Position numbers and translations under genes: made by a program
In this document: positions 6,165 to 62,105 of the stretch, piece by piece
Position numbering within the stretch: position 1 is the first letter of the stretch
Layout of the letters: every line of letters begins with the position of its first letter
The notes under the pieces: model-generated
Databases searched by the model: none
The model's input: only the letters and a program-made list of their open reading frames with translations
Told to the model about the DNA's origin: nothing
Assembly (NCBI GenBank): GCA_025356335.1
Contig: JANXUF010000014.1
Coordinates: forward strand, 62,001 to 126,000
Origin: Actinomycetes bacterium
GTDB lineage: Bacteria; Actinomycetota; Acidimicrobiia; Acidimicrobiales; Ilumatobacteraceae
Reading direction: 5' to 3'
DNA: 64,000 nucleotides

Positions 6165-9100
6165 TCAGCCCTGGAACGTCTCCGGTCGACCGATATCGAG
6201 GTGATCGCCGAGGGTCGGACCGCCGTAGAGCCGCCCGCTGCCCGCGGTGCAGCCAAGACGGACGGCAAGGTCATGGTGGCGTTCGTCTGACACACCTTCG
6301 ACCCAGACGGGGATCGACAGCTCTGCGCCGAGAGCGACGGCATCAGCAGCGGATTTCAGGCCGTCCACCTGTGCTCGTTTCGTGTCGATGATCGAGCTGT
6401 CGAACGCCAGCGCATCCACGTGGAACCGGCGCAGAGTGGCGGCGCTGGCCCAGCCGGAACCGAGTCCGCCGACAGCGATTCGAGCACCCTTGGCCGCCAA
6501 CGATTGCAGTCCGTCGTAGGTGAGATCGGTGGCGACCTGAAGCTCGCTTTCCGTCATCTTCAGCCACAGGCTGCTACCGGCAACGCGCAGGCGGACGACG
6601 ACAGGTGCCAGCACGTCGAGGAACTCCGGATCAGCGAGCTGGTTGGCGCTGACATCAATCGCCAATTCGATCGATCGCCCGGCTCGGTGCCACTGCTCGA
6701 ACTGGAGGAACGCCGTCGGGTAGACGTAGCGAGCCAGATCGCCGAGCGCATGTGCGCTTTCCACGTCACCGATGAAGTCGACGAGATCCCAGGTACCGCC
6801 GTCCGGGCGCAGCCAACGAACCCTGACGTTCACCGCCACAACCGACCGGTCGGCCAGACTGACCACCGGCTCGTAGTAGACGACGAATTCGTTGCGGTTG
6901 ACTGCACGCTGAACTTCCGACCAGCTCGATGCCGGATGTCCGACCGCAGGAAGCACTGACCCCCGCTCGCGCTGGGGACGGTTGACGACGACAATCGCCA
7001 CGATCGCTCCGCCACTGTCGAAGATGATGTTGACGGTCGTCACCACCTCGACGATCGTGCCGTGGCGTGTGATCTGGTCGGCATCCGCAGTCCACCGACC
7101 CGACCGTTCGATCTCCGCTCGGACGGTCGCCAGATCGAACGGCTTCAGGGATCGGACGACGTTCTGCAACGTGTGCCCGAGTACCTCACGTTCCGCCCAG
7201 CCGTACAACCGTTCGGCTGCCGGGTTCCAGCTCAGGACGTGCAGGTCTGGATCGGTGACGATGACGGCGTCGGACACTTCGTTGATGACGCCGTTCACCA
7301 ATTGACGCATCAGATGCGGAGGGTCGATGATTTCGCGAACGCTGACGACGACGGCCGGGAGCTCATCGAAATCGACGTCTGCCGACCGAATCATGGTGAC
7401 GACCTCGGTACCGGTCGTGGTGCGAAGTGAGATCACTTGCGGCCCCGGCGACTGCCCGGTGGCCTGCATTTCCATGCGCGCCTGCGCCGCCGGATGCGAC
7501 GACGGGGCGATGACGTCGAGCACGTCGTGGCCGATGACGTCCGCGGGCTCAGCGGCCATCATCATGTCCAACATGCCGGCGTCGGCAGCGACGATGCGCG
7601 TGTCATCGTGGATGAACTCACCGGAACGTGGGTCGGACTCGGCTGTCGGTGCCTCTCCGTTGGATTCGCCCACCGGTGGCTCGAAGAGGTAGCCGACGCC
7701 CCGCACGGTGCGGAGCAGTCGCGGGCGTGATGGGTCCACCTCGATCTTCGATCGGAGGCGATAGATGTGCTCCGTGACGGTTGTCGCATTCTGCGAATCA
7801 GGCGCTGCGTGCCAGACCTCGTGCAGCAGTTCCCCCCGGGTGCAAACGCGACCGGCGTTCGTCGACAGGTACGCGAGGAGATCGAATTCTTTCGCCGAGA
7901 CATCGATGTCTTCGCCGTCGATCGAGACCATGCGTGCGCTGAGCCGCAACTCGAGCGCACCGAATCGTAGGACATTGGCGGGTTGACCTGGCGTGTCGTC
8001 GACTCGTTCGCTGATCCGAGTGAGCTCGACGACGGCTTCGCCGACGGCTGTCGCCCCGTCTCGCTCCGACTGGGAGACGCTGACAGGGCCATGGGCGGCC
8101 AACGTGGACGGATGGACACTGTGGAGGAGGTCTGTCAGCTCGGCAGCCCGCCGCCGGAGGTCGAGCATCGCACCGGTCTGATCGGCGAGCATCGTCAGCT
8201 GTGCGATCTGCTCGTCGGTGAAGTCGCGCGGAACGGTGTCGAGTACGCACAGGGTGCCGAGCGGAAGTCCTTCGCGACTGCGAATCGGAATGCCGGCATA
8301 CGCCCGGATGTTCGGCTCGCCGGTCACCAACGGGTTGTCGACGAACCGTTCGTCGAGGAGTACGTCGCGCACCAGGAACGGCTGACGCGGATGGGCGATG
8401 GCATGGTGGCAGAACGCGACCTCGCGCGATGTCTCGGTCGCTTCGATCCCGATGCGCGCCTTGAACCACTGGCGGTTGCTGTCCAACAACGAGACGAGGC
8501 CCATCGGAGTCGCCAGCAGCTGGGTCGCAAGCCGAACGACCGAGTCGAAGGCATCGTCTGCCGCCGTGTCGAGGATCTTGCATGCTCGCAGTGCAGCCAG
8601 GCGCTGGAGCTCTTCGAAGGAACCATCTGGCGACGCCAGGACCGCCACACCGCCGACGCTGCCCCCATAGGCGGCTACCAGTTCATCGAACGGCAGGGCA
8701 GGATTGAACAGCCACCCTTGGGCCAACCGGCATCCGAGGGCGACGAGCTGAGCTCGCTGGGATTCGGTCTCGACTCCCTCGGCGACGACCTGCAGGCCGA
8801 GTTCCTTGGCGAGGTTGATCACCGAACGCACGATCGCTGTATCGCTCGCATCGATTCCGAGACCGCTCACGAACGTCATGTCGATCTTCAGGGCGTCGAC
8901 GGGAAGTCGCGTGAGGTACTGGAAGGTTGCGTAGCCGGTTCCGAAATCGTCGATCACGAGATGCACGCCGAGGTCGTGCAAATGATGGAGAGGCACGAGT
9001 GCGCGATCGTCCAACAGCACGCTTTCGGTCACCTCGATCCACATGCGGTTCGGATTGATGTCGTGCCGCGCCAGTACGCTCGCGACTCGGCTGGTGATGT

Positions 9101-10364
9101 CCGGGTCGCGCAGCTGGACGACCGACATGTTGACGCTGATCTCCGCATCGATGCCGTGTGCAGCGAGGGCGGCGAGATCTGCACACGACCGATCGAGGAT
9201 CCATTCCCCGAGCTCGGCAATCGTCTCCGAGCGCTCGGCCAACGGGATGAACTCCGCCGGGTTGATCGCGCCGCGAACGGGATGGTTCCAACGGGCCAGG
9301 GCCTCGAGCTTTTCCAATCGGCCGGAGGCCAGCTCGACGATCGGCTGATAAGCGACGTAGGTCTGTCCGGACGACAGCGCTTCGCGGACATCGGCGGCGA
9401 AAACTGCGAGGTCCGCCCAGCTCGTCGACGCTTGGTTCGCCTCGAAGAAACGAAGCTGTCGGCCGCCGTTCATCTGCGCTTCGTTCAGCGCGATTTCGGC
9501 ATGATCGAACAGCATGTGCGCGTCGCCGGCATTGCGTCCCCATGCCGCTCCGATGCTCGCAGTGATCGAGATCAACGACCCGCCGATCTGGAACGGTTCG
9601 GCAATGACCCGCTCCACCCGAGCGGCGATCGCCCAGGCCTCTTCGATGTCGTGGACGCTACCGAGGATACCGAACCGGTCGCCGCTGAGTCGGGCCGCAA
9701 AGTCTCCCCCGCGGACGCAAGCAGCAAGGCGGGCACCGAACTCGACAAGGATCTGATCGCCGGCCTCTGAGCCGAGCCGGGCGTTGAGCCGTCCGAAGTA
9801 GTCGATGTCCACGACCACGACTGCCGACGACTTGTCGGACGGCGCAGCGTCGAGGTGGGCGAGGAGACCCGCTCGAAGCGGCAGCCCGGTGAGTTCGTCA
9901 GCCGCGTACCTGACGGGTTCATGGCGGGCTTTCGTCGCGACGTCGCCATTCACGTGGTTGTCGGCGCGGGTGTACTGCTCGTCGGCGGTACATGCGAGGG
10001 AGATGGCCTGCTTCGCCGGCTGGACGACGCCGACCGTTGAGGTCGTCCTGTTTGCAGCCGATCGGTCGAGGCGGACGAATGCGACGCGGGAGCCCTGATG
10101 ATCGATGTAGCGCACGCTGCGAAGCTCGAATTCCATCGGCCCAGACCGTGACGTAAGGACAACATGCGCGCCGTCGAAACTGCGATCGATCCATTTCGGA
10201 CCGGTGAACAGACGAGCCAGCGTGCTCCTCGACGAACGGTCGGCGATGTCGACGATCGATCGACCGACGATGTCCGACGTCTCGATATCGAGTTCCCGAA
10301 GGAGCGCTGGGCCGACCCAGAGGATGCGCCGGTCGGCTGTCTCGACGGTGATGGAGAGATTCAC
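6165..10364 (-). CDS. Giant signalling fusion: PAS-GGDEF-EAL-GAF-OmpR/PhoB DNA-binding-PAS-PAS-EAL-like (1399 aa)
   Basis: The start is a GTG (10362-10364) with GGGAG five bases upstream. Domains by residue: PAS about 8-100; GGDEF 155-305 with degenerate SGDRF (227-231) but an intact RxxD I-site (RGGD 218-221); EAL 325-565 with EAL (354-356), DDFGTG (472-477) and EGVE (529-532), so probably an active c-di-GMP phosphodiesterase. Next come GAF 585-740, an OmpR/PhoB winged helix 798-896 (AKEFDLLAYLS, TEHIYRLRSKIE, RTVRGVGYLF), PAS 912-1010 and PAS 1017-1130. The last part, 1145-1390, is a second EAL-like domain with VRV for EAL and GGLGSG for DDFGTG, hence catalytically dead. No membrane segment is seen. 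The combination suggests one protein that reads c-di-GMP or GTP, degrades c-di-GMP and binds DNA. A GTGCAAATGCAC palindrome lies upstream. Confidence 0.87.
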   Translation of the reverse strand: MNLSITVETADRRILWVGPALLRELDIETSDIVGRSIVDIADRSSRSTLARLFTGPKWIDRSFDGAHVVLTSRSGPMEFELRSVRYIDHQGSRVAFVRLDRSAANRTTSTVGVVQPAKQAISLACTADEQYTRADNHVNGDVATKARHEPVRYAADELTGLPLRAGLLAHLDAAPSDKSSAVVVVDIDYFGRLNARLGSEAGDQILVEFGARLAACVRGGDFAARLSGDRFGILGSVHDIEEAWAIAARVERVIAEPFQIGGSLISITASIGAAWGRNAGDAHMLFDHAEIALNEAQMNGGRQLRFFEANQASTSWADLAVFAADVREALSSGQTYVAYQPIVELASGRLEKLEALARWNHPVRGAINPAEFIPLAERSETIAELGEWILDRSCADLAALAAHGIDAEISVNMSVVQLRDPDITSRVASVLARHDINPNRMWIEVTESVLLDDRALVPLHHLHDLGVHLVIDDFGTGYATFQYLTRLPVDALKIDMTFVSGLGIDASDTAIVRSVINLAKELGLQVVAEGVETESQRAQLVALGCRLAQGWLFNPALPFDELVAAYGGSVGGVAVLASPDGSFEELQRLAALRACKILDTAADDAFDSVVRLATQLLATPMGLVSLLDSNRQWFKARIGIEATETSREVAFCHHAIAHPRQPFLVRDVLLDERFVDNPLVTGEPNIRAYAGIPIRSREGLPLGTLCVLDTVPRDFTDEQIAQLTMLADQTGAMLDLRRRAAELTDLLHSVHPSTLAAHGPVSVSQSERDGATAVGEAVVELTRISERVDDTPGQPANVLRFGALELRLSARMVSIDGEDIDVSAKEFDLLAYLSTNAGRVCTRGELLHEVWHAAPDSQNATTVTEHIYRLRSKIEVDPSRPRLLRTVRGVGYLFEPPVGESNGEAPTAESDPRSGEFIHDDTRIVAADAGMLDMMMAAEPADVIGHDVLDVIAPSSHPAAQARMEMQATGQSPGPQVISLRTTTGTEVVTMIRSADVDFDELPAVVVSVREIIDPPHLMRQLVNGVINEVSDAVIVTDPDLHVLSWNPAAERLYGWAEREVLGHTLQNVVRSLKPFDLATVRAEIERSGRWTADADQITRHGTIVEVVTTVNIIFDSGGAIVAIVVVNRPQRERGSVLPAVGHPASSWSEVQRAVNRNEFVVYYEPVVSLADRSVVAVNVRVRWLRPDGGTWDLVDFIGDVESAHALGDLARYVYPTAFLQFEQWHRAGRSIELAIDVSANQLADPEFLDVLAPVVVRLRVAGSSLWLKMTESELQVATDLTYDGLQSLAAKGARIAVGGLGSGWASAATLRRFHVDALAFDSSIIDTKRAQVDGLKSAADAVALGAELSIPVWVEGVSDERHHDLAVRLGCTAGSGRLYGGPTLGDHLDIGRPETFQG

Positions 10365-10470
10365 TTGGGCTCCCTGCACGGAGGGGACTACCCGGACCCG
10401 GACGGCGTGCGTACACCATACCACAGCGCCCGTGCAACGCTGGGTGTGGTGGATGCACCCGGGAGCAACC

Positions 10471-10482
10471 GTGCATTTGCAC
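10471..10482. promoter_or_regulatory. GTGCAAATGCAC palindrome upstream of the GGDEF/EAL fusion
   Basis: On the minus strand this reads GTGCAAATGCAC, about 107 bp before the GTG start of the fusion gene. The same 12-mer lies upstream of the two paralogous response regulators at 44.9 kb and 60.9 kb. It is a perfect palindrome apart from its central AA. No binder is known; a shared regulator is inferred. It lies in the 290-bp gap between this gene and the divergent AlkB-like gene. Confidence 0.6.
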
Positions 10483-10654: not shown

Positions 10655-11362
10655 ATGAGCACAGATGCCACGTGGCTGATGCAGGAGCCGACCGTCGAAC
10701 GTGTCGCCCTCGACACGGATTGCTGGGTCGACGTCGTTCGAGGATTCGTCCCTGACCATCGGCGTGTTCACGACGATCTGGCGAGCGGCGCCCGATGGCA
10801 GAACGGGCGAACGTTCTACTACGAGCGCTGGGTCGATGATGTCCGTCGCAGCGCTACGCAGTCGGGCGCCGGTCGTCATCCTGCGCTGATCGAATCGGAG
10901 ACGTGGTTGTTCCGCCGGTACCGCGTGCGGTTTTCGGGTGTCGTGCTCAGTGAGTACCGCGACGCACGCGAGGGGCTCGGCTTTCATCGCGACCGGGGTA
11001 TGACGTGGCTCGACGAGACACTCGTCGCCCTGCTGACCTTCGGCGGTCAGCGGCCGTGGCTGATGCGGCCCGATACCGGCCGGCCGCCGATCGACGCCGA
11101 CGGTGCCAGCGGGTCGATCGATCTCGCTCCTGCTGGTGGTGATCTGCTGGTGATGGGCGGGCGTTGTCAACGCAGTTGGCTGCACGCCGTGCCGACCGTC
11201 CCGTACGCAGTCGAGAGTCGGATCTCCGCGCAGTGGCGTTGGACGTCGAGACGTGGCGAGCCCGACACCGAGCCGAAACCTCGTGACCCTCGGTACTTCT
11301 CCAAACCAGCTGGCGGAGCGCCCCGGCTCCCCATCGCCGGTGACGACCCGCACAGGACGTGA
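10655..11362 (+). CDS. AlkB-like 2-oxoglutarate/Fe(II) dioxygenase
   Basis: A 235-residue protein with the AlkB-type double-stranded beta-helix pattern. The Fe ligands H and D are in LGFHRDRGM, the distal His in QRSWLHAVP, and the 2-oxoglutarate-binding Arg region in RISAQWRW. YRDAREGLGFHRD resembles the nucleotide-lid side of AlkB homologues. Such enzymes remove alkyl groups from DNA or RNA bases by oxidation; some bacterial AlkB-like proteins act on other substrates. It stands alone, divergent from the signalling fusion, and I saw no SOS-type operator. Confidence 0.82.
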   Translation: MSTDATWLMQEPTVERVALDTDCWVDVVRGFVPDHRRVHDDLASGARWQNGRTFYYERWVDDVRRSATQSGAGRHPALIESETWLFRRYRVRFSGVVLSEYRDAREGLGFHRDRGMTWLDETLVALLTFGGQRPWLMRPDTGRPPIDADGASGSIDLAPAGGDLLVMGGRCQRSWLHAVPTVPYAVESRISAQWRWTSRRGEPDTEPKPRDPRYFSKPAGGAPRLPIAGDDPHRT

Positions 11363-43501: not shown

Positions 43502-44758
43502 TCACGCCTCGATGATGAACAGCGGTAATTTGGTGGCGGCTGCGGCACGTACCTGGTCGCGTCCGGCTGCTTTGGCGTCCATCAGTCGTTGGTCGGCGAG
43601 GAGCAGCAGATCCTGGAAGTCGTCGCATTCGTTGGTGTCGGCGATGCCTGCGGAGACGGTGAACATCGGGGTGCGTCCGTCGCTGAGCGCTGCTGCGAGT
43701 TCCCAGCGCACACGGTCCAATATGCTCGCTGCCAGCACGGTGTCGGCGTGCGGCATGACGACGACGAATTCCTCACCACCGTGGCGTGACACCAAGTCGC
43801 CGGCGCGTACGGTGTTGCGCAACGTGCGGGCGAAGACTCGCAGGGCCCGGTCACCGGTTTCATGACCGAACGTGTCGTTGATCGCCTTGAACAGATCGAG
43901 GTCACACATGCCAACGGCGTAGGGCACCCTGTCCTGGTGCAACAATCGAACGGAGTTCTCCAGACTGCGACGGTTCGCCAGTCCGGTCAACGGATCGGTG
44001 CTGGCTTGCAACTGTGACTGCCTCGTCGCTCGGAGCATGCCGACGCGCTGACCGGCCATGTGCGCCACTGCAGTGATCTGGTCCCGTTCGGCCACCGTGA
44101 ACGGCTGTCCGGACCGCACGGCGTGGACGACGCCGGTCGCCCGTCCGACGATGCTCACCGGGACACAGAGTGCCGCCATTGCACCGTCGCCACGACCGAC
44201 GAGATTCGGGCAGCAGTCGAGTTGATCACTGCGAGCGAACTCGCGTGCATGGCCGTTGAGGATCGCCGGGCAACCGCGAGGCGTGGCGACGTCGCAGGCT
44301 GCTTCGGCGCCGCACCCCTGCGTTGCCGTGACGGTCTGCAAATGGGCTTCGCTGTTGTCGGCGAGCAACACCGTCGCTGCGCTGTTGTCGGCGCACATCG
44401 CCAATGCCCTCGCTGTCACCGCCAACGCATCTTTTTCGACCTCCGCCATTTCCAACGCACGCAAGAAACGAGCGTCGAACTGTTGGCGGGTGTTCTGCAC
44501 CCGCAATGCCTCGGTGGTCTCGTCTGCACGGCCCCGCTGCTGCATCAGCATGACCCGTAAGGGCACGGCGACGACGACAAAAACAAGTAGCGCAACGGCG
44601 ATGATGAACACCAACCACCTCGATCCGCCAGCAACGAACCGATCGGACACCGCCCGGGCGAGCGCCGCCAGCAGCACCACCACGACCAAATCGGCAACCA
44701 CCGTCGGCCATGAACCACTCATCGGATCGAAACGCCGAACGTCGAGCCGCCACTTCAC
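43502..44758 (-). CDS. Membrane-anchored GAF-GGDEF diguanylate cyclase
   Basis: A 418-residue protein. Two membrane segments at about 18-37 and 46-67, a coiled region, a GAF domain about 95-245, and a GGDEF domain 250-410 with DPLTGLANRRSLE, the A-site RHGGEEF (GGEEF 327-331) and an I-site RAGD (318-321) for product inhibition. It should synthesise c-di-GMP. The GAF domain contains several Cys (C149, C155, C163, C182, C183), which could sense redox state or bind a metal; that is speculative. GTG start. It converges on the BldD-like gene with a 117-bp gap. Confidence 0.9.
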   Translation of the reverse strand: MKWRLDVRRFDPMSGSWPTVVADLVVVVLLAALARAVSDRFVAGGSRWLVFIIAVALLVFVVVAVPLRVMLMQQRGRADETTEALRVQNTRQQFDARFLRALEMAEVEKDALAVTARALAMCADNSAATVLLADNSEAHLQTVTATQGCGAEAACDVATPRGCPAILNGHAREFARSDQLDCCPNLVGRGDGAMAALCVPVSIVGRATGVVHAVRSGQPFTVAERDQITAVAHMAGQRVGMLRATRQSQLQASTDPLTGLANRRSLENSVRLLHQDRVPYAVGMCDLDLFKAINDTFGHETGDRALRVFARTLRNTVRAGDLVSRHGGEEFVVVMPHADTVLAASILDRVRWELAAALSDGRTPMFTVSAGIADTNECDDFQDLLLLADQRLMDAKAAGRDQVRAAAATKLPLFIIEA

Positions 44759-44945: not shown

Positions 44946-44959
44946 GGTGCAAATGCACC
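44946..44959. promoter_or_regulatory. GGTGCAAATGCACC palindrome upstream of response regulator A
   Basis: A 14-bp palindrome around the 12-mer shared with 10471-10482 and 60924-60935. Downstream the sequence is clearly homologous to the region before response regulator B: a TTCACTTT-N-AGCGTC block and AGCGCT within 45 bp, then GGTTCTGTGGTGGTT about 128 bp on, and GAAAGGGTGCA at the ribosome-binding site. The 420-bp gap 44759-45177 therefore holds a conserved, duplicated control region rather than a gene. Confidence 0.65.
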
Positions 44960-45086
44960 TATTCACTTTCAGCGTCAGTTCAAGCGCTTACCGCGGTACG
45001 ACGGACGTTAGCGTCTTCGTCCAAGTCGTTGTCATCGTCCGTCCTCACCAAGCGGTTGGACCGAAAAAAATGGCGGCGGTTCTGTG

Positions 45087-45108
45087 GTGGTTGCCGTTCC
45101 GCAACCAC
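45087..45108 (+). other. Leader hairpin upstream of response regulator A
   Basis: GTGGTTGC (45087-45094) and GCAACCAC (45101-45108) form a perfect 8-bp stem with a 6-nt loop in the leader. The flanking GGTTCTGTGGTGGTT is shared with the paralogous leader at 61.05 kb, where only a shorter GGTGG/CCACC pairing is possible. No U-rich tail follows, so it is not an intrinsic terminator. Confidence 0.5.
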
Positions 45109-45177
45109 GACGCGAGGGCGGTATCCAGGGCGAATACGGCCCGCTGGACAGGGTCGAATTCGTCGAAAGGGTGCACA

Positions 45178-45228
45178 GTGATCGAGCAGCAATGGCTCCC
45201 GGCACTCCGTGAGATCGTCGATGTTTGA
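45178..45228 (+). CDS. Possible 16-residue leader peptide coupled to response regulator A
   Basis: GTG start with GAAAGGG six bases upstream; reads MIEQQWLPALREIVDV and stops in an ATGTTTGA overlap with the regulator's ATG. The ribosome-binding site fits this small frame rather than the regulator itself, so the regulator may depend on translational coupling. In the paralogue at 61 kb the same ribosome-binding site drives an in-frame N-terminal extension. It could be a bypassed or chance frame. Confidence 0.4.
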   Translation: MIEQQWLPALREIVDV

Positions 45229-45946
45229 CCAGGTGTCGACGCCGATCGGCGTGTTGATCGTCGATGACCATCGGATGTTCGCCGAGAGCCTGGCACGTCT
45301 CCTCGACGACGATGATCGCATCACCGTGGTCGGCGTCGCCAACTCTGGCACCGCAGCTCTCAGCCAATTGACACGGCTGAAACCTCAGGTCGTGCTCGTC
45401 GACTTCCAGATGCCGGACCAAGATGGCGTCGCCGTCACGGTCGCCATCAAGCAGTCGAGCCCCGCAACCAAGGTCGTGATGCTCTCGGAGTCCACAGACG
45501 ATCGGATCGTGTTCGCCGCGTTGGAGGCCGGCTGCTCGGGATTCCTGACCAAGGATCGCGCCGCATCGGACGTCATCGAAGCGGTGTGTGTCGCCGATGC
45601 CGGCGGTGCGACCGTCTCACCGATGATCCTCGCCCGGCTACTCCTCGCTCGAGGGCCCGCCCCGCACACCCTCGGATCAGATCTCAGTGATCGCGAAATA
45701 GAGGTATTGAGACTGTTCTCGGAAGGTTTCACGAACCGGGTCATCGCTGCGCAACTGTTCCTCAGCGTCAACACGATCCGCAACTACGTCAATGCCATAC
45801 TTCGAAAACTCGATGCCCACACCAAACTGCAGGCAGTCTTCATCGCCAACCAGATCGGCTTGCTCGACCGCCCGCACACCCCGGAGTCCTCCGTACCGAC
45901 CGTCACATCGGCAACCACGCGACACCGCCTCCCTCGGTGCCGATGA
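45221..45946 (+). CDS. Orphan NarL/LuxR-family response regulator A
   Basis: About 241 residues. Receiver: GVLIVDDHRMFAESLARLL, phospho-Asp in VVLVDFQMPDQDG, Ser/Thr position VVMLSESTDD, Lys in GFLTKDRAAS. LuxR HTH: LSDREIEVLRLFSEGFTNRVIAAQLF and NTIRNYVNAILRKLDAHTKLQAV (cores shown). No kinase gene is adjacent. It is a close paralogue of the regulator at 61-62 kb; the two differ mainly in the tail and the N-terminus. A GTG at 45209 is an alternative start. The upstream palindrome is shared with the GGDEF/EAL fusion gene. Confidence 0.9.
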   Translation: MFDQVSTPIGVLIVDDHRMFAESLARLLDDDDRITVVGVANSGTAALSQLTRLKPQVVLVDFQMPDQDGVAVTVAIKQSSPATKVVMLSESTDDRIVFAALEAGCSGFLTKDRAASDVIEAVCVADAGGATVSPMILARLLLARGPAPHTLGSDLSDREIEVLRLFSEGFTNRVIAAQLFLSVNTIRNYVNAILRKLDAHTKLQAVFIANQIGLLDRPHTPESSVPTVTSATTRHRLPRCR

Positions 45947-46062: not shown

Positions 46063-46422
46063 ATGTTCGACAATGATCCTCAGGCATCGTGCCCGTATCC
46101 CGGCGTGATGATCAGTGTGACTCGGTTCGAGGGAGCCCTCAGCCTCGTCGTCGCCGGAGACATCGACGCTTCGACGGTTGACCGCTTGACGTCGGCGCTC
46201 GAGCGTTTCATGGCTCAGCCCGGGTTGGTGCTCGATCTCGGTGCTGTCGCCTTCATCGATTCCCGAGGTGCTGCGGCGTTCGCCGCCGCCGCCAAACACT
46301 TCGGAAAGTCGATGCGCATCAACAACGCCTCGCGTGCGTTGCGAACCGTGTTCCGCATCGTCGGGCTCGATCAGATCATCGACCTCCACCCGCCACGATC
46401 GCCACCGTCACGCAGCATCTGA
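46063..46422 (+). CDS. STAS-domain protein (anti-sigma-factor antagonist type)
   Basis: Up to 119 residues, with the ATG at 46108 an equally likely start. The STAS fold is visible: LSLVVAGDIDASTVDRLTSAL, LVLDLGAVAFIDSRGAAAFAAAAKHFG with the phosphorylatable Ser in FIDSRG, and a C-terminal helix. Such proteins release sigma factors by binding an anti-sigma kinase when dephosphorylated. No RsbW-like kinase or sigma gene is nearby. The 269-bp gap after it shows nothing I can support. Confidence 0.8.
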   Translation: MFDNDPQASCPYPGVMISVTRFEGALSLVVAGDIDASTVDRLTSALERFMAQPGLVLDLGAVAFIDSRGAAAFAAAAKHFGKSMRINNASRALRTVFRIVGLDQIIDLHPPRSPPSRSI

Positions 46423-59572: not shown

Positions 59573-60799
59573 TCACGCGCCCTGGACGATTGCCCGCCGT
59601 GGGAGACGGCGGATCCACGCGCTGTGGCTGCTGACATCGCCCCCGTCGGGTCTGGCCAGCCATGGGTACGGATGAAGCGCGACGATGTCGAGGTGTGCAG
59701 CTCGGCGTTGGAAGCCAGGGACAGGCGCAAAGGTCGCTGCGAGCTTCACCCCGTGCAAATCGGTCGCCGGGTCACCGAGCAGCAGCCGCAGAGGACGGTG
59801 CTCAGCGAGTTCTGCCAACGTCTGGGCGATGAACGTGAGCCGTTTCGTACTCAGGCGCAGCTGTTCGAGCAGCGGCTCGTCGAAGACGAACACCGCAGGT
59901 TTCGTCGGCCATGCCACCAGCGCAGGATCGCCTGCTCCCATCGATTCTGCGGTCAACCAGACCTCTTCGGGTGTGCCCGTCACCACGGGCATTTCCGGGC
60001 CGACGAGATCTGCGCCGGAGCGGAGCAACGCATCCTCCAGCGCTCGTCCGGACTGTGCAGCCGGCCAGTTCTCGATCGGACATGCCGATGCGCGCGGACA
60101 CGAGGCGCACCACGCCGCCGCGCGCCGTTCGACTTGCCATCGCGAGAACCCGTATGGTTTGGAGGTCATCGCTCCTACCGACCATTGCCAGCCGTACCGG
60201 TTGGCCGCTCGTGACCCGTCGAGCAGATGACGGAACATCCATTCCTCGCCATTGCGCCAGTCGTGCCCGGCGCGAACCGTCCAGTGCGAGGCCAGCCACA
60301 TGCGCGTCTGGTTCACCAGCCAGCCCGTCTGCTCCAACTCGTCGCGCACACGCGACATGCACACCATGTCCTCATCGACCGGCTCGGGCCACGTCGGTGC
60401 CCCAATCGCTGGTTCTCGTCGTAGCGGACGGCGGCTGCGGGTTCCGACCCGTGCGTACAGGTGCCGGGCGTACTCCTGCCACCACAGCTCGTCGACAAAC
60501 CGCCGTCGATCCGCAACCGGTGCGCCCCCGACGGCGGCGATCGCCTCTGCCAGGGTGATCATCCCGTGGCGGATGTAGGGCGATAGGACCGTCGCCGTCC
60601 GGCTGGACGGCGGATCGACCATGCTGCGTCGTTGTGCATAGCCGGCCACATCGAGCGCTGCAAGCGCTTCGTCCGCAGCTCGCTGTCCCCCGCGCCGAGC
60701 CGGACGCGCGGTGGTGCCCGCGTCGCACACCAGATGTCCGAGATGTCGTGTGACCCACTCCGTCTCGGATACGGGTGTCGGGATCGGTAGTTCGAGCAC
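59573..60799 (-). CDS. Photolyase/cryptochrome-like FAD protein with apparently swapped domain order and four Cys
   Basis: About 408 residues. Residues 65-245 carry the FAD-binding helical domain: LSPYIRHG, ELWWQEYARHLY, NQTRMWLASHW and NRYGWQWSVG. Cys147, Cys231, Cys234 and Cys240 (WCASCPRASACP) resemble the Cys set that holds a [4Fe-4S] cluster in FeS-type bacterial photolyases. After it, residues 278-395 (VWLTAESMGAGDPAL, VFVFDEPLLEQLRLSTKR) resemble the alpha/beta domain that normally comes first. So the two halves look swapped. Function (DNA repair or light sensing) is open. GTG start at 60797-60799; the frame is open further upstream across the palindrome. Confidence 0.75.
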   Translation of the reverse strand: MLELPIPTPVSETEWVTRHLGHLVCDAGTTARPARRGGQRAADEALAALDVAGYAQRRSMVDPPSSRTATVLSPYIRHGMITLAEAIAAVGGAPVADRRRFVDELWWQEYARHLYARVGTRSRRPLRREPAIGAPTWPEPVDEDMVCMSRVRDELEQTGWLVNQTRMWLASHWTVRAGHDWRNGEEWMFRHLLDGSRAANRYGWQWSVGAMTSKPYGFSRWQVERRAAAWCASCPRASACPIENWPAAQSGRALEDALLRSGADLVGPEMPVVTGTPEEVWLTAESMGAGDPALVAWPTKPAVFVFDEPLLEQLRLSTKRLTFIAQTLAELAEHRPLRLLLGDPATDLHGVKLAATFAPVPGFQRRAAHLDIVALHPYPWLARPDGGDVSSHSAWIRRLPRRAIVQGA

Positions 60800-60923
60800 G
60801 TGACCAGTTGTACCGGTCTCGACGTGCGGATCAGTCGGCGTGGGCGACCCGTCCTCGGCCGCCCCCGCCCTCCTCAGGTCGGCAGCCGGACTTGGCTGCC
60901 GGTCGATTGCACCAGGACGACCG

Positions 60924-60935
60924 GTGCAAATGCAC
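60924..60935. promoter_or_regulatory. GTGCAAATGCAC palindrome upstream of response regulator B
   Basis: Third copy of the 12-mer. The next 215 bases up to the start of regulator B are recognisably homologous to the leader of regulator A (TTCACTTT block, AGCGCT, GGTTCTGTGGTGGTT, AGGGCGAAT, GAAAGGGTGCA), while stretches between diverge. The blocks keep nearly the same spacing (128 versus 131 bp from palindrome to GGTTCTG), which suggests they are functional sites. Confidence 0.65.
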
Positions 60936-61151
60936 TGTTTCACTTTGAGCGTCGGTCCGAGCGCTCAACGAGGCGTCAGTCGTACTATGATTGTTCTCCA
61001 GGGCTGTTTTTATCGTCTCTCCGCACGGCTGGTGCTGGAGCACATCGGGCGACGGTTCTGTGGTGGTTTCGGTACTCGTTCCACCATGCAAGGGCGATAT
61101 TCAGGGCGAATGCGGTCCACCGGCAGGTCGAGTCCGTTGAAAGGGTGCAGC

Positions 61152-62105
61152 ATGTTCGATCATGACGTGAGTGGCGAATTTGTCGACACGATTCCGGCTG
61201 CACGCGTGGCCTTCGACCCCCGACGATTGATCGAGTCGGGCGACGTCGAGACACGCGTCGGGTTCGAACGCTTGCGGTCGGTCGACGAACTGACCGACGA
61301 CACACCATGCAGGGATACGCAGGCGATGGTGTTGGTCGAAGCCGTGGCGGGCGAACGATGCTGGACGCGATCCGTGGGGAAGTCGATGTTCGACGACTCA
61401 TCGTCGCCGATCGGGCTGTTGATCGTCGACGACCATCGGATGTTCGCCGAGAGCCTGGCACGTCTCCTCGACGACGATGATCGCATCAGCGTGGTCGGCG
61501 TCGCTGACTCCGGTAGCGCTGCACTCAGTCTGGTGAAACGGCTGCAACCCCACGTTGTGCTCGTCGACTTTCAGATGCCGGACCAGGATGGCGTCGCCGT
61601 CACGGTCGCCATCAAGCAGTTGAGCCCTGCGACCAAGGTGGTGATGCTCTCAGAATCCATGGATGAACGGATCGTGTTCGCCGCTTTGGAGGCCGGCTGC
61701 TCGGGATTCCTGACCAAGGATCGCGCCGCATCGGACGTCATCGAAGCGGTGTGTGTCGCCGATGCCGGCGGTGCCACCGTCTCACCGATGATCCTCGCCC
61801 GGTTACTGCACACTCACGGTCCCGCCCCGTACACGCTCGGCTCGGATCTCAGCAATCGTGAAATGGAAGTACTGAGACTGGTCGCAGAAGGTTCGACGAA
61901 CCGGGTCATCGCAGCGCAACTGTTCCTCAGCGTCAACACGATCCGCAACTACGTCAATTCGATACTCGGCAAACTCAACGCCCACACCAAGTTGCAAGCC
62001 GTGTACATCGCCGGCCAGATCGGCCTGCTCGACCACCCGTACTCGCCGTCGAACGGCGCACGACACTGCTTACCCCAACGGCGACACCTCAGCAACTCAC
62101 GCTGA
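61152..62105 (+). CDS. Orphan NarL/LuxR-family response regulator B with N-terminal extension
   Basis: 317 residues from the ATG at 61152, which has GAAAGGG seven bases upstream. Residues 1-78 are an extension with no recognised domain (MFDHDVSGEFVDTIPAARVA at the start). From MFDDSSSPIGLLIVDDHRM (ATG 61386) onward it parallels regulator A: phospho-Asp in DFQMPDQDG, Lys in FLTKDRAAS, LuxR HTH LSNREMEVLRLVAEGSTNRV and NTIRNYVNSILGKLNAHTKL. Translation could also start at 61386, but no ribosome-binding site is clear there. No kinase gene is adjacent. Paralogue of the regulator at 45 kb. Confidence 0.85.
   Translation: MFDHDVSGEFVDTIPAARVAFDPRRLIESGDVETRVGFERLRSVDELTDDTPCRDTQAMVLVEAVAGERCWTRSVGKSMFDDSSSPIGLLIVDDHRMFAESLARLLDDDDRISVVGVADSGSAALSLVKRLQPHVVLVDFQMPDQDGVAVTVAIKQLSPATKVVMLSESMDERIVFAALEAGCSGFLTKDRAASDVIEAVCVADAGGATVSPMILARLLHTHGPAPYTLGSDLSNREMEVLRLVAEGSTNRVIAAQLFLSVNTIRNYVNSILGKLNAHTKLQAVYIAGQIGLLDHPYSPSNGARHCLPQRRHLSNSR

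What the first reader, a model, noticed from the sequence alone, without database searches (positions are those of the whole stretch)
10471..10482. GTGCAAATGCAC occurs upstream of three signalling genes and may define a circuit
The 12-mer palindrome is found at 10471-10482 (minus orientation, before the GGDEF/EAL/OmpR fusion), 44946-44959 (before response regulator A) and 60924-60935 (before response regulator B). A random 12-mer is not expected three times in 64 kb, and all three precede regulators of transcription or c-di-GMP. Candidates for the binder are the regulators themselves or the OmpR domain of the fusion.
Basis: partly seen in the sequence, partly recalled or inferred. Interest (0 to 1): 0.72.

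Follow-up and report, generated by a model that had tools for sequence, protein, structure and literature searches.

The report
Response-regulator operator for c-di-GMP genes
A 12-letter DNA word that occurs only three times in this bacterium's whole genome appears to be the binding site of a small family of two-component response regulators that control their own genes and genes for cyclic-di-GMP turnover and pili, and related sites lie beside the same regulators in other genera.

Summary
GTGCAAATGCAC (inverted repeat GTGCA-AA-TGCAC) occurs exactly three times in the 5.57 Mb assembly, and all three copies lie in this window (0.38 expected by chance). Sites 2 and 3 are not independent: they open a roughly 240-bp leader (71% identical) shared by two paralogous NarL/FixJ-type response-regulator genes, A and B. 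Site 1 is independent.

The circuit idea is mostly supported, with the regulators as binders. An unbiased scan of 2,816 gapped palindromes just downstream of 30 related regulator genes ranks GTGC-N4-GCAC first. A matrix trained only on boxes from other genomes ranks the three sites first in this window. In this genome, 4 of the 13 sites with at most one mismatch lie just upstream of GGDEF genes, of which the genome has only 24 (p about 6e-9). Another lies between the pilus genes PilB and PilC. In other genera the box precedes EAL, GGDEF and Tad-pilus genes, and in one clade a luciferase-like monooxygenase.

Best reading: an autoregulated two-component regulon controlling c-di-GMP turnover and pili, with an operator I did not find described. 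The OmpR domain as binder is not supported. Binding, phosphorylation, and activation versus repression are untested.

The parts
10471..10482 (-). Box 1, GTGCAAATGCAC, 107 bp upstream of the inferred GTG start (10364) of the GGDEF-EAL-GAF-OmpR-PAS-EAL gene and 173 bp upstream of the divergent AlkB-like gene
   Evidence: matrix score 18.6
10454..10464 (-). Accessory element TCCCGGGTGCA on the gene side of box 1; also found next to the box of the PAS-GGDEF-EAL gene on contig C6 (L139 2901-2911); holds a GGGTGCA half-site
   Evidence: Sequence comparison by eye; spacing to the box differs (6 versus 4 bp); role inferred
44947..44958 (+). Box 2, GTGCAAATGCAC (14-bp form GGTGCAAATGCACC 44946-44959), 274 bp upstream of regulator A and about 190 bp upstream of the divergent GAF-GGDEF gene
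   Evidence: matrix score 18.7
60924..60935 (+). Box 3, GTGCAAATGCAC, 228 bp upstream of the inferred start of regulator B and upstream of the divergent photolyase-like gene
   Evidence: matrix score 21.9
44946..45188 (+). Leader of regulator A, homologous to the leader of regulator B; the box is its upstream edge
   Evidence: found only twice, both in this genome, among 221 family genomes; no support for a conserved RNA fold
60923..61162 (+). Leader of regulator B
45221..45946 (+). Regulator A: receiver plus GerE (LuxR-type) HTH, NarL/FixJ class
   Evidence: Pfam PF00072 and PF00196
61152..62105 (+). Regulator B: same domains with a 78-residue N-terminal extension; 84% identical to A
6165..10364 (-). 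GGDEF-EAL-GAF-OmpR(Trans_reg_C)-PAS-EAL fusion protein, inferred target of box 1
   Evidence: Pfam; start inferred
43502..44758 (-). GAF-GGDEF protein, divergent from regulator A, possible second target of box 2
   Evidence: Pfam; the GAF match is below its curated cut-off

Best explanation
The 12-mer is the operator of a small subfamily of NarL/FixJ-type response regulators (A and B in this window, C on contig C114). Two GerE-type HTH domains of a regulator dimer would each read a GGTGCA half-site (consensus roughly TGGTGCAMWYGCACYA). The phosphorylated regulators would act at their own promoters (sites 2 and 3) and at promoters of c-di-GMP enzymes and type IV pilus genes, tying sensor kinases to c-di-GMP turnover and surface behaviour. 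Shown by sequence: rarity, placement, association with the regulator family across genera, and the kinds of genes next to the boxes. Inferred: direct binding, dependence on phosphorylation, autoregulation, and the direction of control.
For: (1) Only three exact copies in 5.57 Mb, all here, control zero. (2) Among 2,816 gapped 4+4 palindromes tested in the 250 bp after the stop of 30 related regulator genes, GTGC-N4-GCAC ranks first (6 loci, 0.56 expected, p 2.6e-5; next best 2.7e-3); no window box lies in the tested stretches. (3) Related loci carry near-identical boxes before the next gene: two exact copies plus weaker ones in a tandem array in L033, likewise in L034, and single copies in L039, L133, L037 and L129; genes behind them are GAF-EAL (two), PAS-GGDEF, PAS-kinase and Tad pilus. 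(4) In this genome the one-mismatch sites outside genes lie before a PAS-GGDEF-EAL gene (C6), between regulator C and a CHASE-GGDEF-EAL gene (C114), and between PilB (MshEN-T2SSE) and PilC (T2SSF). (5) 4 of 13 sites with at most one mismatch lie within 400 bp upstream of 24 GGDEF genes, p about 6e-9. (6) A matrix from other genomes' boxes puts the three window sites first in the window. (7) Of 29 exact copies examined in family genomes other than this one, none has a GGDEF, EAL or regulator relative within 1.5 kb. (8) The recognition helix (S)VNT[IV]RN[YH][VM] is shared; the luciferase-linked clade has both a diverged regulator and a diverged box, GTGCACTYGCAC.
Against: No binding or expression data exist. 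Several related regulators (L128, L130, L131, L132, L134) have no good box within reach. The box has not been shown to be conserved upstream of orthologues of the fusion. The six hits of the unbiased test fall into about three lineages, so its p value is optimistic. Twenty other GGDEF genes in the genome have no box found, so any c-di-GMP link is to a subset.
Confidence: 0.75

Rival explanations
1. The box is read by another, unlinked transcription factor (for example a c-di-GMP-responsive master regulator) that controls both the regulators and the c-di-GMP genes; the regulators are only targets.
For: Most boxes at related loci lie after the regulator gene, before the next gene, so adjacency shows linkage but not identity of the binder.
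Against: The box tracks the regulator family in several genera and changes together with it in the luciferase clade. Exact copies sampled in other family genomes lie in unrelated places. Inverted GGTGCA repeats suit a dimeric GerE-type HTH.
Confidence: 0.14
2. The box serves the divergent DNA-repair-like genes (AlkB-like at 10655, photolyase-like at 59573-60943), as a light or DNA-damage operator.
For: Two of three window sites lie upstream of such genes.
Against: The other boxes found here and in other genera lie before c-di-GMP, kinase, pilus or luciferase-like genes, none before repair genes. The repair genes may still be co-regulated.
Confidence: 0.05
3. The OmpR-type domain of the fusion protein binds the word.
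For: Site 1 lies upstream of the fusion gene.
Against: Boxes accompany the regulator family in genera where no such fusion lies beside them, and relatives of the fusion lack a box.
Confidence: 0.03
4. Chance plus duplication: sites 2 and 3 are one duplicated promoter and site 1 is coincidence.
For: Sites 2 and 3 are paralogous; one independent extra copy is not impossible (0.38 expected).
Against: The unbiased palindrome test, the matrix trained elsewhere and the GGDEF enrichment.
Confidence: 0.03

Closest known systems
NarL/FixJ (LuxR/GerE-type) response-regulator regulons
   Same: Receiver plus GerE HTH, short inverted-repeat operators, sites in their own promoters, kinase-regulator operons in relatives.
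   Different: Operator word not found described for any bacterium in the searched library; targets are c-di-GMP enzymes and pili in Acidimicrobiia; A and B are orphans without an adjacent kinase.
TraR / tra box (quorum-sensing LuxR proteins), from memory
   Same: GerE HTH reading GTGCA half-sites in inverted repeat.
   Different: The tra box sequence could not be checked in the library.
SgmT/DigR of Myxococcus xanthus (PMC3509222)
   Same: Orphan DNA-binding response regulator tied to c-di-GMP and to the matrix needed for type IV pilus-dependent motility.
   Different: Known from the abstract only; different phylum; no homology tested here.
BldD and other c-di-GMP-linked regulators of Actinobacteria, from memory
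   Same: Transcriptional control linked to c-di-GMP in the same phylum.
   Different: Different protein family and different operator; not tested here.

Membership tests
NarL/FixJ-type response regulator (proteins A, B, C) | Receiver domain followed by GerE/LuxR HTH | tested here: met
   A and B: PF00072 and PF00196 above cut-off; C by 62% identity to A
NarL/FixJ-type response regulator (proteins A, B, C) | Phospho-acceptor Asp with conserved Lys and Thr/Ser | tested here: met
   Read by eye from the translations: VVLVDFQMP, MLSES, LTKD
NarL/FixJ-type operator | Inverted repeat bound by the regulator | not testable with these tools
   Inverted repeat present; binding untested
Autoregulated two-component system | Operator in the regulator's own promoter | tested here: inconclusive
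   Boxes 2 and 3 lie 274 bp and 228 bp upstream of the inferred starts of A and B; transcription starts unknown
Autoregulated two-component system | Cognate histidine kinase | tested here: inconclusive
   Kinase genes directly upstream of regulator C and of several related regulators; none seen adjacent to A or B
LuxR quorum-sensing (TraR-like) regulator | Autoinducer-binding domain | tested here: not met
   Receiver domain instead
OmpR-type operator | Direct repeats bound by winged helix | tested here: not met
   The word is an inverted repeat

The most novel reading that the evidence does not exclude
A conserved, previously undescribed two-component regulon of Acidimicrobiia in which one regulator subfamily and its own box act as a dedicated switch for c-di-GMP enzymes and both type IV and Tad pili, with tandem boxes (three to four) in some genomes and co-evolved box variants in a luciferase-like branch.
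Probability: 0.5. Interest if true: 0.62.

Novelty: new member of a known kind. Interest (0 to 1): 0.52.

Why it matters
The searched library gave almost nothing on how c-di-GMP is wired to transcription in Acidimicrobiia, a group of mostly uncultured soil and water bacteria (one paper matched). A predicted operator with a named protein family and named target promoters turns anonymous GGDEF/EAL genes into a testable circuit, and the box can be looked for in any genome that carries the regulator.

Tried and rejected
Leader of A and B as a structured RNA: no Rfam match, fold of B no better than shuffles, found only in this genome. Family-wide regulon with the exact word: low counts and mostly inside open frames in genomes without the regulator. 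Degenerate pattern GTGCAMWYGCAC genome-wide: about as frequent as its reversed control in most genomes, and most matches away from the regulators are inside genes, so it is too loose to define a regulon. Palindrome scan with composition-only expectation: swamped by coding-sequence words such as GTCG and TCGT, so replaced by a background from the same loci. Box upstream of the fusion's orthologue: contig ends.

Full report
OBSERVATION. The 12-mer GTGCAAATGCAC is present at 10471-10482 (minus), 44947-44958 and 60924-60935 (plus). In the 5.57 Mb assembly there is no further exact copy, and the reversed control word is absent. At 65% GC about 0.38 copies would be expected. The word is an interrupted inverted repeat, GTGCA-AA-TGCAC.

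INDEPENDENCE. Sites 2 and 3 open a homologous leader (71% identity over about 245 bp) in front of two paralogous response-regulator genes, and no clear homology extends upstream of the box. They count as one event. Site 1 shares only the box and a few flanking bases with them.

GENES. Regulator A (45221-45946) and regulator B (61152-62105) are receiver plus GerE proteins, 84% identical. Site 1 lies between a GGDEF-EAL-GAF-OmpR-PAS-EAL gene and an AlkB-like gene. Site 2 lies between a GAF-GGDEF gene and A. Site 3 lies between a photolyase-like gene and B. The longest open frames run across the boxes; the start codons I use are inferred from likely ribosome-binding sites and domain positions.

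RELATED REGULATOR LOCI. Relatives of A (41-62% identity) were fetched from other Acidimicrobiia and Actinomycetes, plus a third paralogue C in this genome on contig C114. Boxes lie just after many of these regulator genes and before the next gene: L039 GGTGCAAACGCACTA, L133 CTTGCAAATGCACTA, L037 GGCACAAATGCACTA, L129 CGGTGCAAACGCATCC, and C AGTGCAAATGTACTA. L033 has a tandem array with two exact boxes and two weaker ones; L034 has two exact and one weaker. A branch linked to a luciferase-like monooxygenase has GGTGCACTYGCACYA (L124, L125, L126, L136). To avoid circularity I scored all 2,816 gapped 4+4 palindromes in the 250 bp after 30 such genes against a background from the same loci. GTGC-N4-GCAC ranked first, with 6 loci against 0.56 expected, p 2.6e-5, next best 2.7e-3. 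These stretches contain none of the window boxes. The six loci fall into about three lineages, so the p value is optimistic.

TARGETS. Genes behind the boxes at related loci: GAF-EAL (L039, L133), PAS-GGDEF (L034), multi-PAS kinase (L033), Tad/RcpC pilus genes (L129), and GGDEF-EAL behind a looser inverted repeat (L121, L122). In this genome ten sites have one mismatch. Seven appear to lie inside open frames. The other three lie before a PAS-GGDEF-EAL gene (C6), between regulator C and a CHASE-GGDEF-EAL gene (C114), and between PilB (MshEN-T2SSE) and PilC (T2SSF); the last is outside the PilC gene only if an inferred downstream GTG start is right. The genome has 24 GGDEF matches. Four of the 13 sites with at most one mismatch lie within 400 bp upstream of one of them, binomial p about 6e-9. 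Boxes 1 and C6 also share TCCCGGGTGCA on the gene side.

CROSS-CHECKS. A matrix trained only on boxes of other genomes ranks the three window sites first in the window (21.9, 18.7 and 18.6 bits; next 15.6). The C6 site scores 22.1, but its locus was fetched because it matched. Among 29 exact copies examined in other genomes of the family, none has a GGDEF, EAL or regulator relative within 1.5 kb, although many of those genomes are small. A quick tree shows the recognition helix conserved among box-bearing regulators and the luciferase branch distinct in both protein and box. Several related regulators have no good box nearby.

MECHANISM. Most likely the box is the operator of this regulator subfamily (0.75). 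Shown: rarity, position, association with the family, kind of neighbours. Inferred: binding, phosphorylation, autoregulation, direction of control. The fusion's OmpR domain is not supported as binder. Conservation upstream of the fusion's orthologue (72% identity, G213) could not be tested because the contig ends; more distant relatives lack the box.

KNOWN OR NEW. The word was found in five papers of the library, whose titles and abstracts concern human or animal-cell work. Searches for c-di-GMP response regulators in Acidimicrobiia found no description of this circuit. Absence from this library is not proof. It is a new member of a known kind: a NarL/FixJ-type regulon.

Noticed in passing
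window 45178-45228 and 61152-61386: Where B has an N-terminal extension, A has only a 16-codon open frame ending in ATGTTTGA, overlapping A's start; possible translational coupling or a decayed extension.
   Followed up: partly
window 46063-46422: The open frame after regulator A reads like a STAS anti-sigma-factor antagonist (by eye, not scanned).
   Followed up: no
window 44946-45188 and 60923-61162: The A/B leader is found only in this genome among 221 of the family; no sign of a conserved RNA structure.
   Followed up: yes
window 6165-10364: Unusual fusion GGDEF-EAL-GAF-OmpR-PAS-EAL with a DNA-binding domain in its middle; one 72% orthologue in G213, cut at its contig end.
   Followed up: partly
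L033 2408-2508, L034 2619-2700: Tandem arrays of three to four boxes (the last three in L033 spaced 24 bp) before PAS-sensor genes.
   Followed up: partly
L125, L124, L126, L136: Conserved pairing of a related regulator with a luciferase-like monooxygenase gene, with box variant GTGCACTYGCAC between them.
   Followed up: partly
L122 about 11035, L121 equivalent: TGGTGC-N4-GCACCA palindrome (TGGTGCCATTGCACCA in L122) just after a PAS-hybrid-kinase gene; the gene behind it was not identified.
   Followed up: partly
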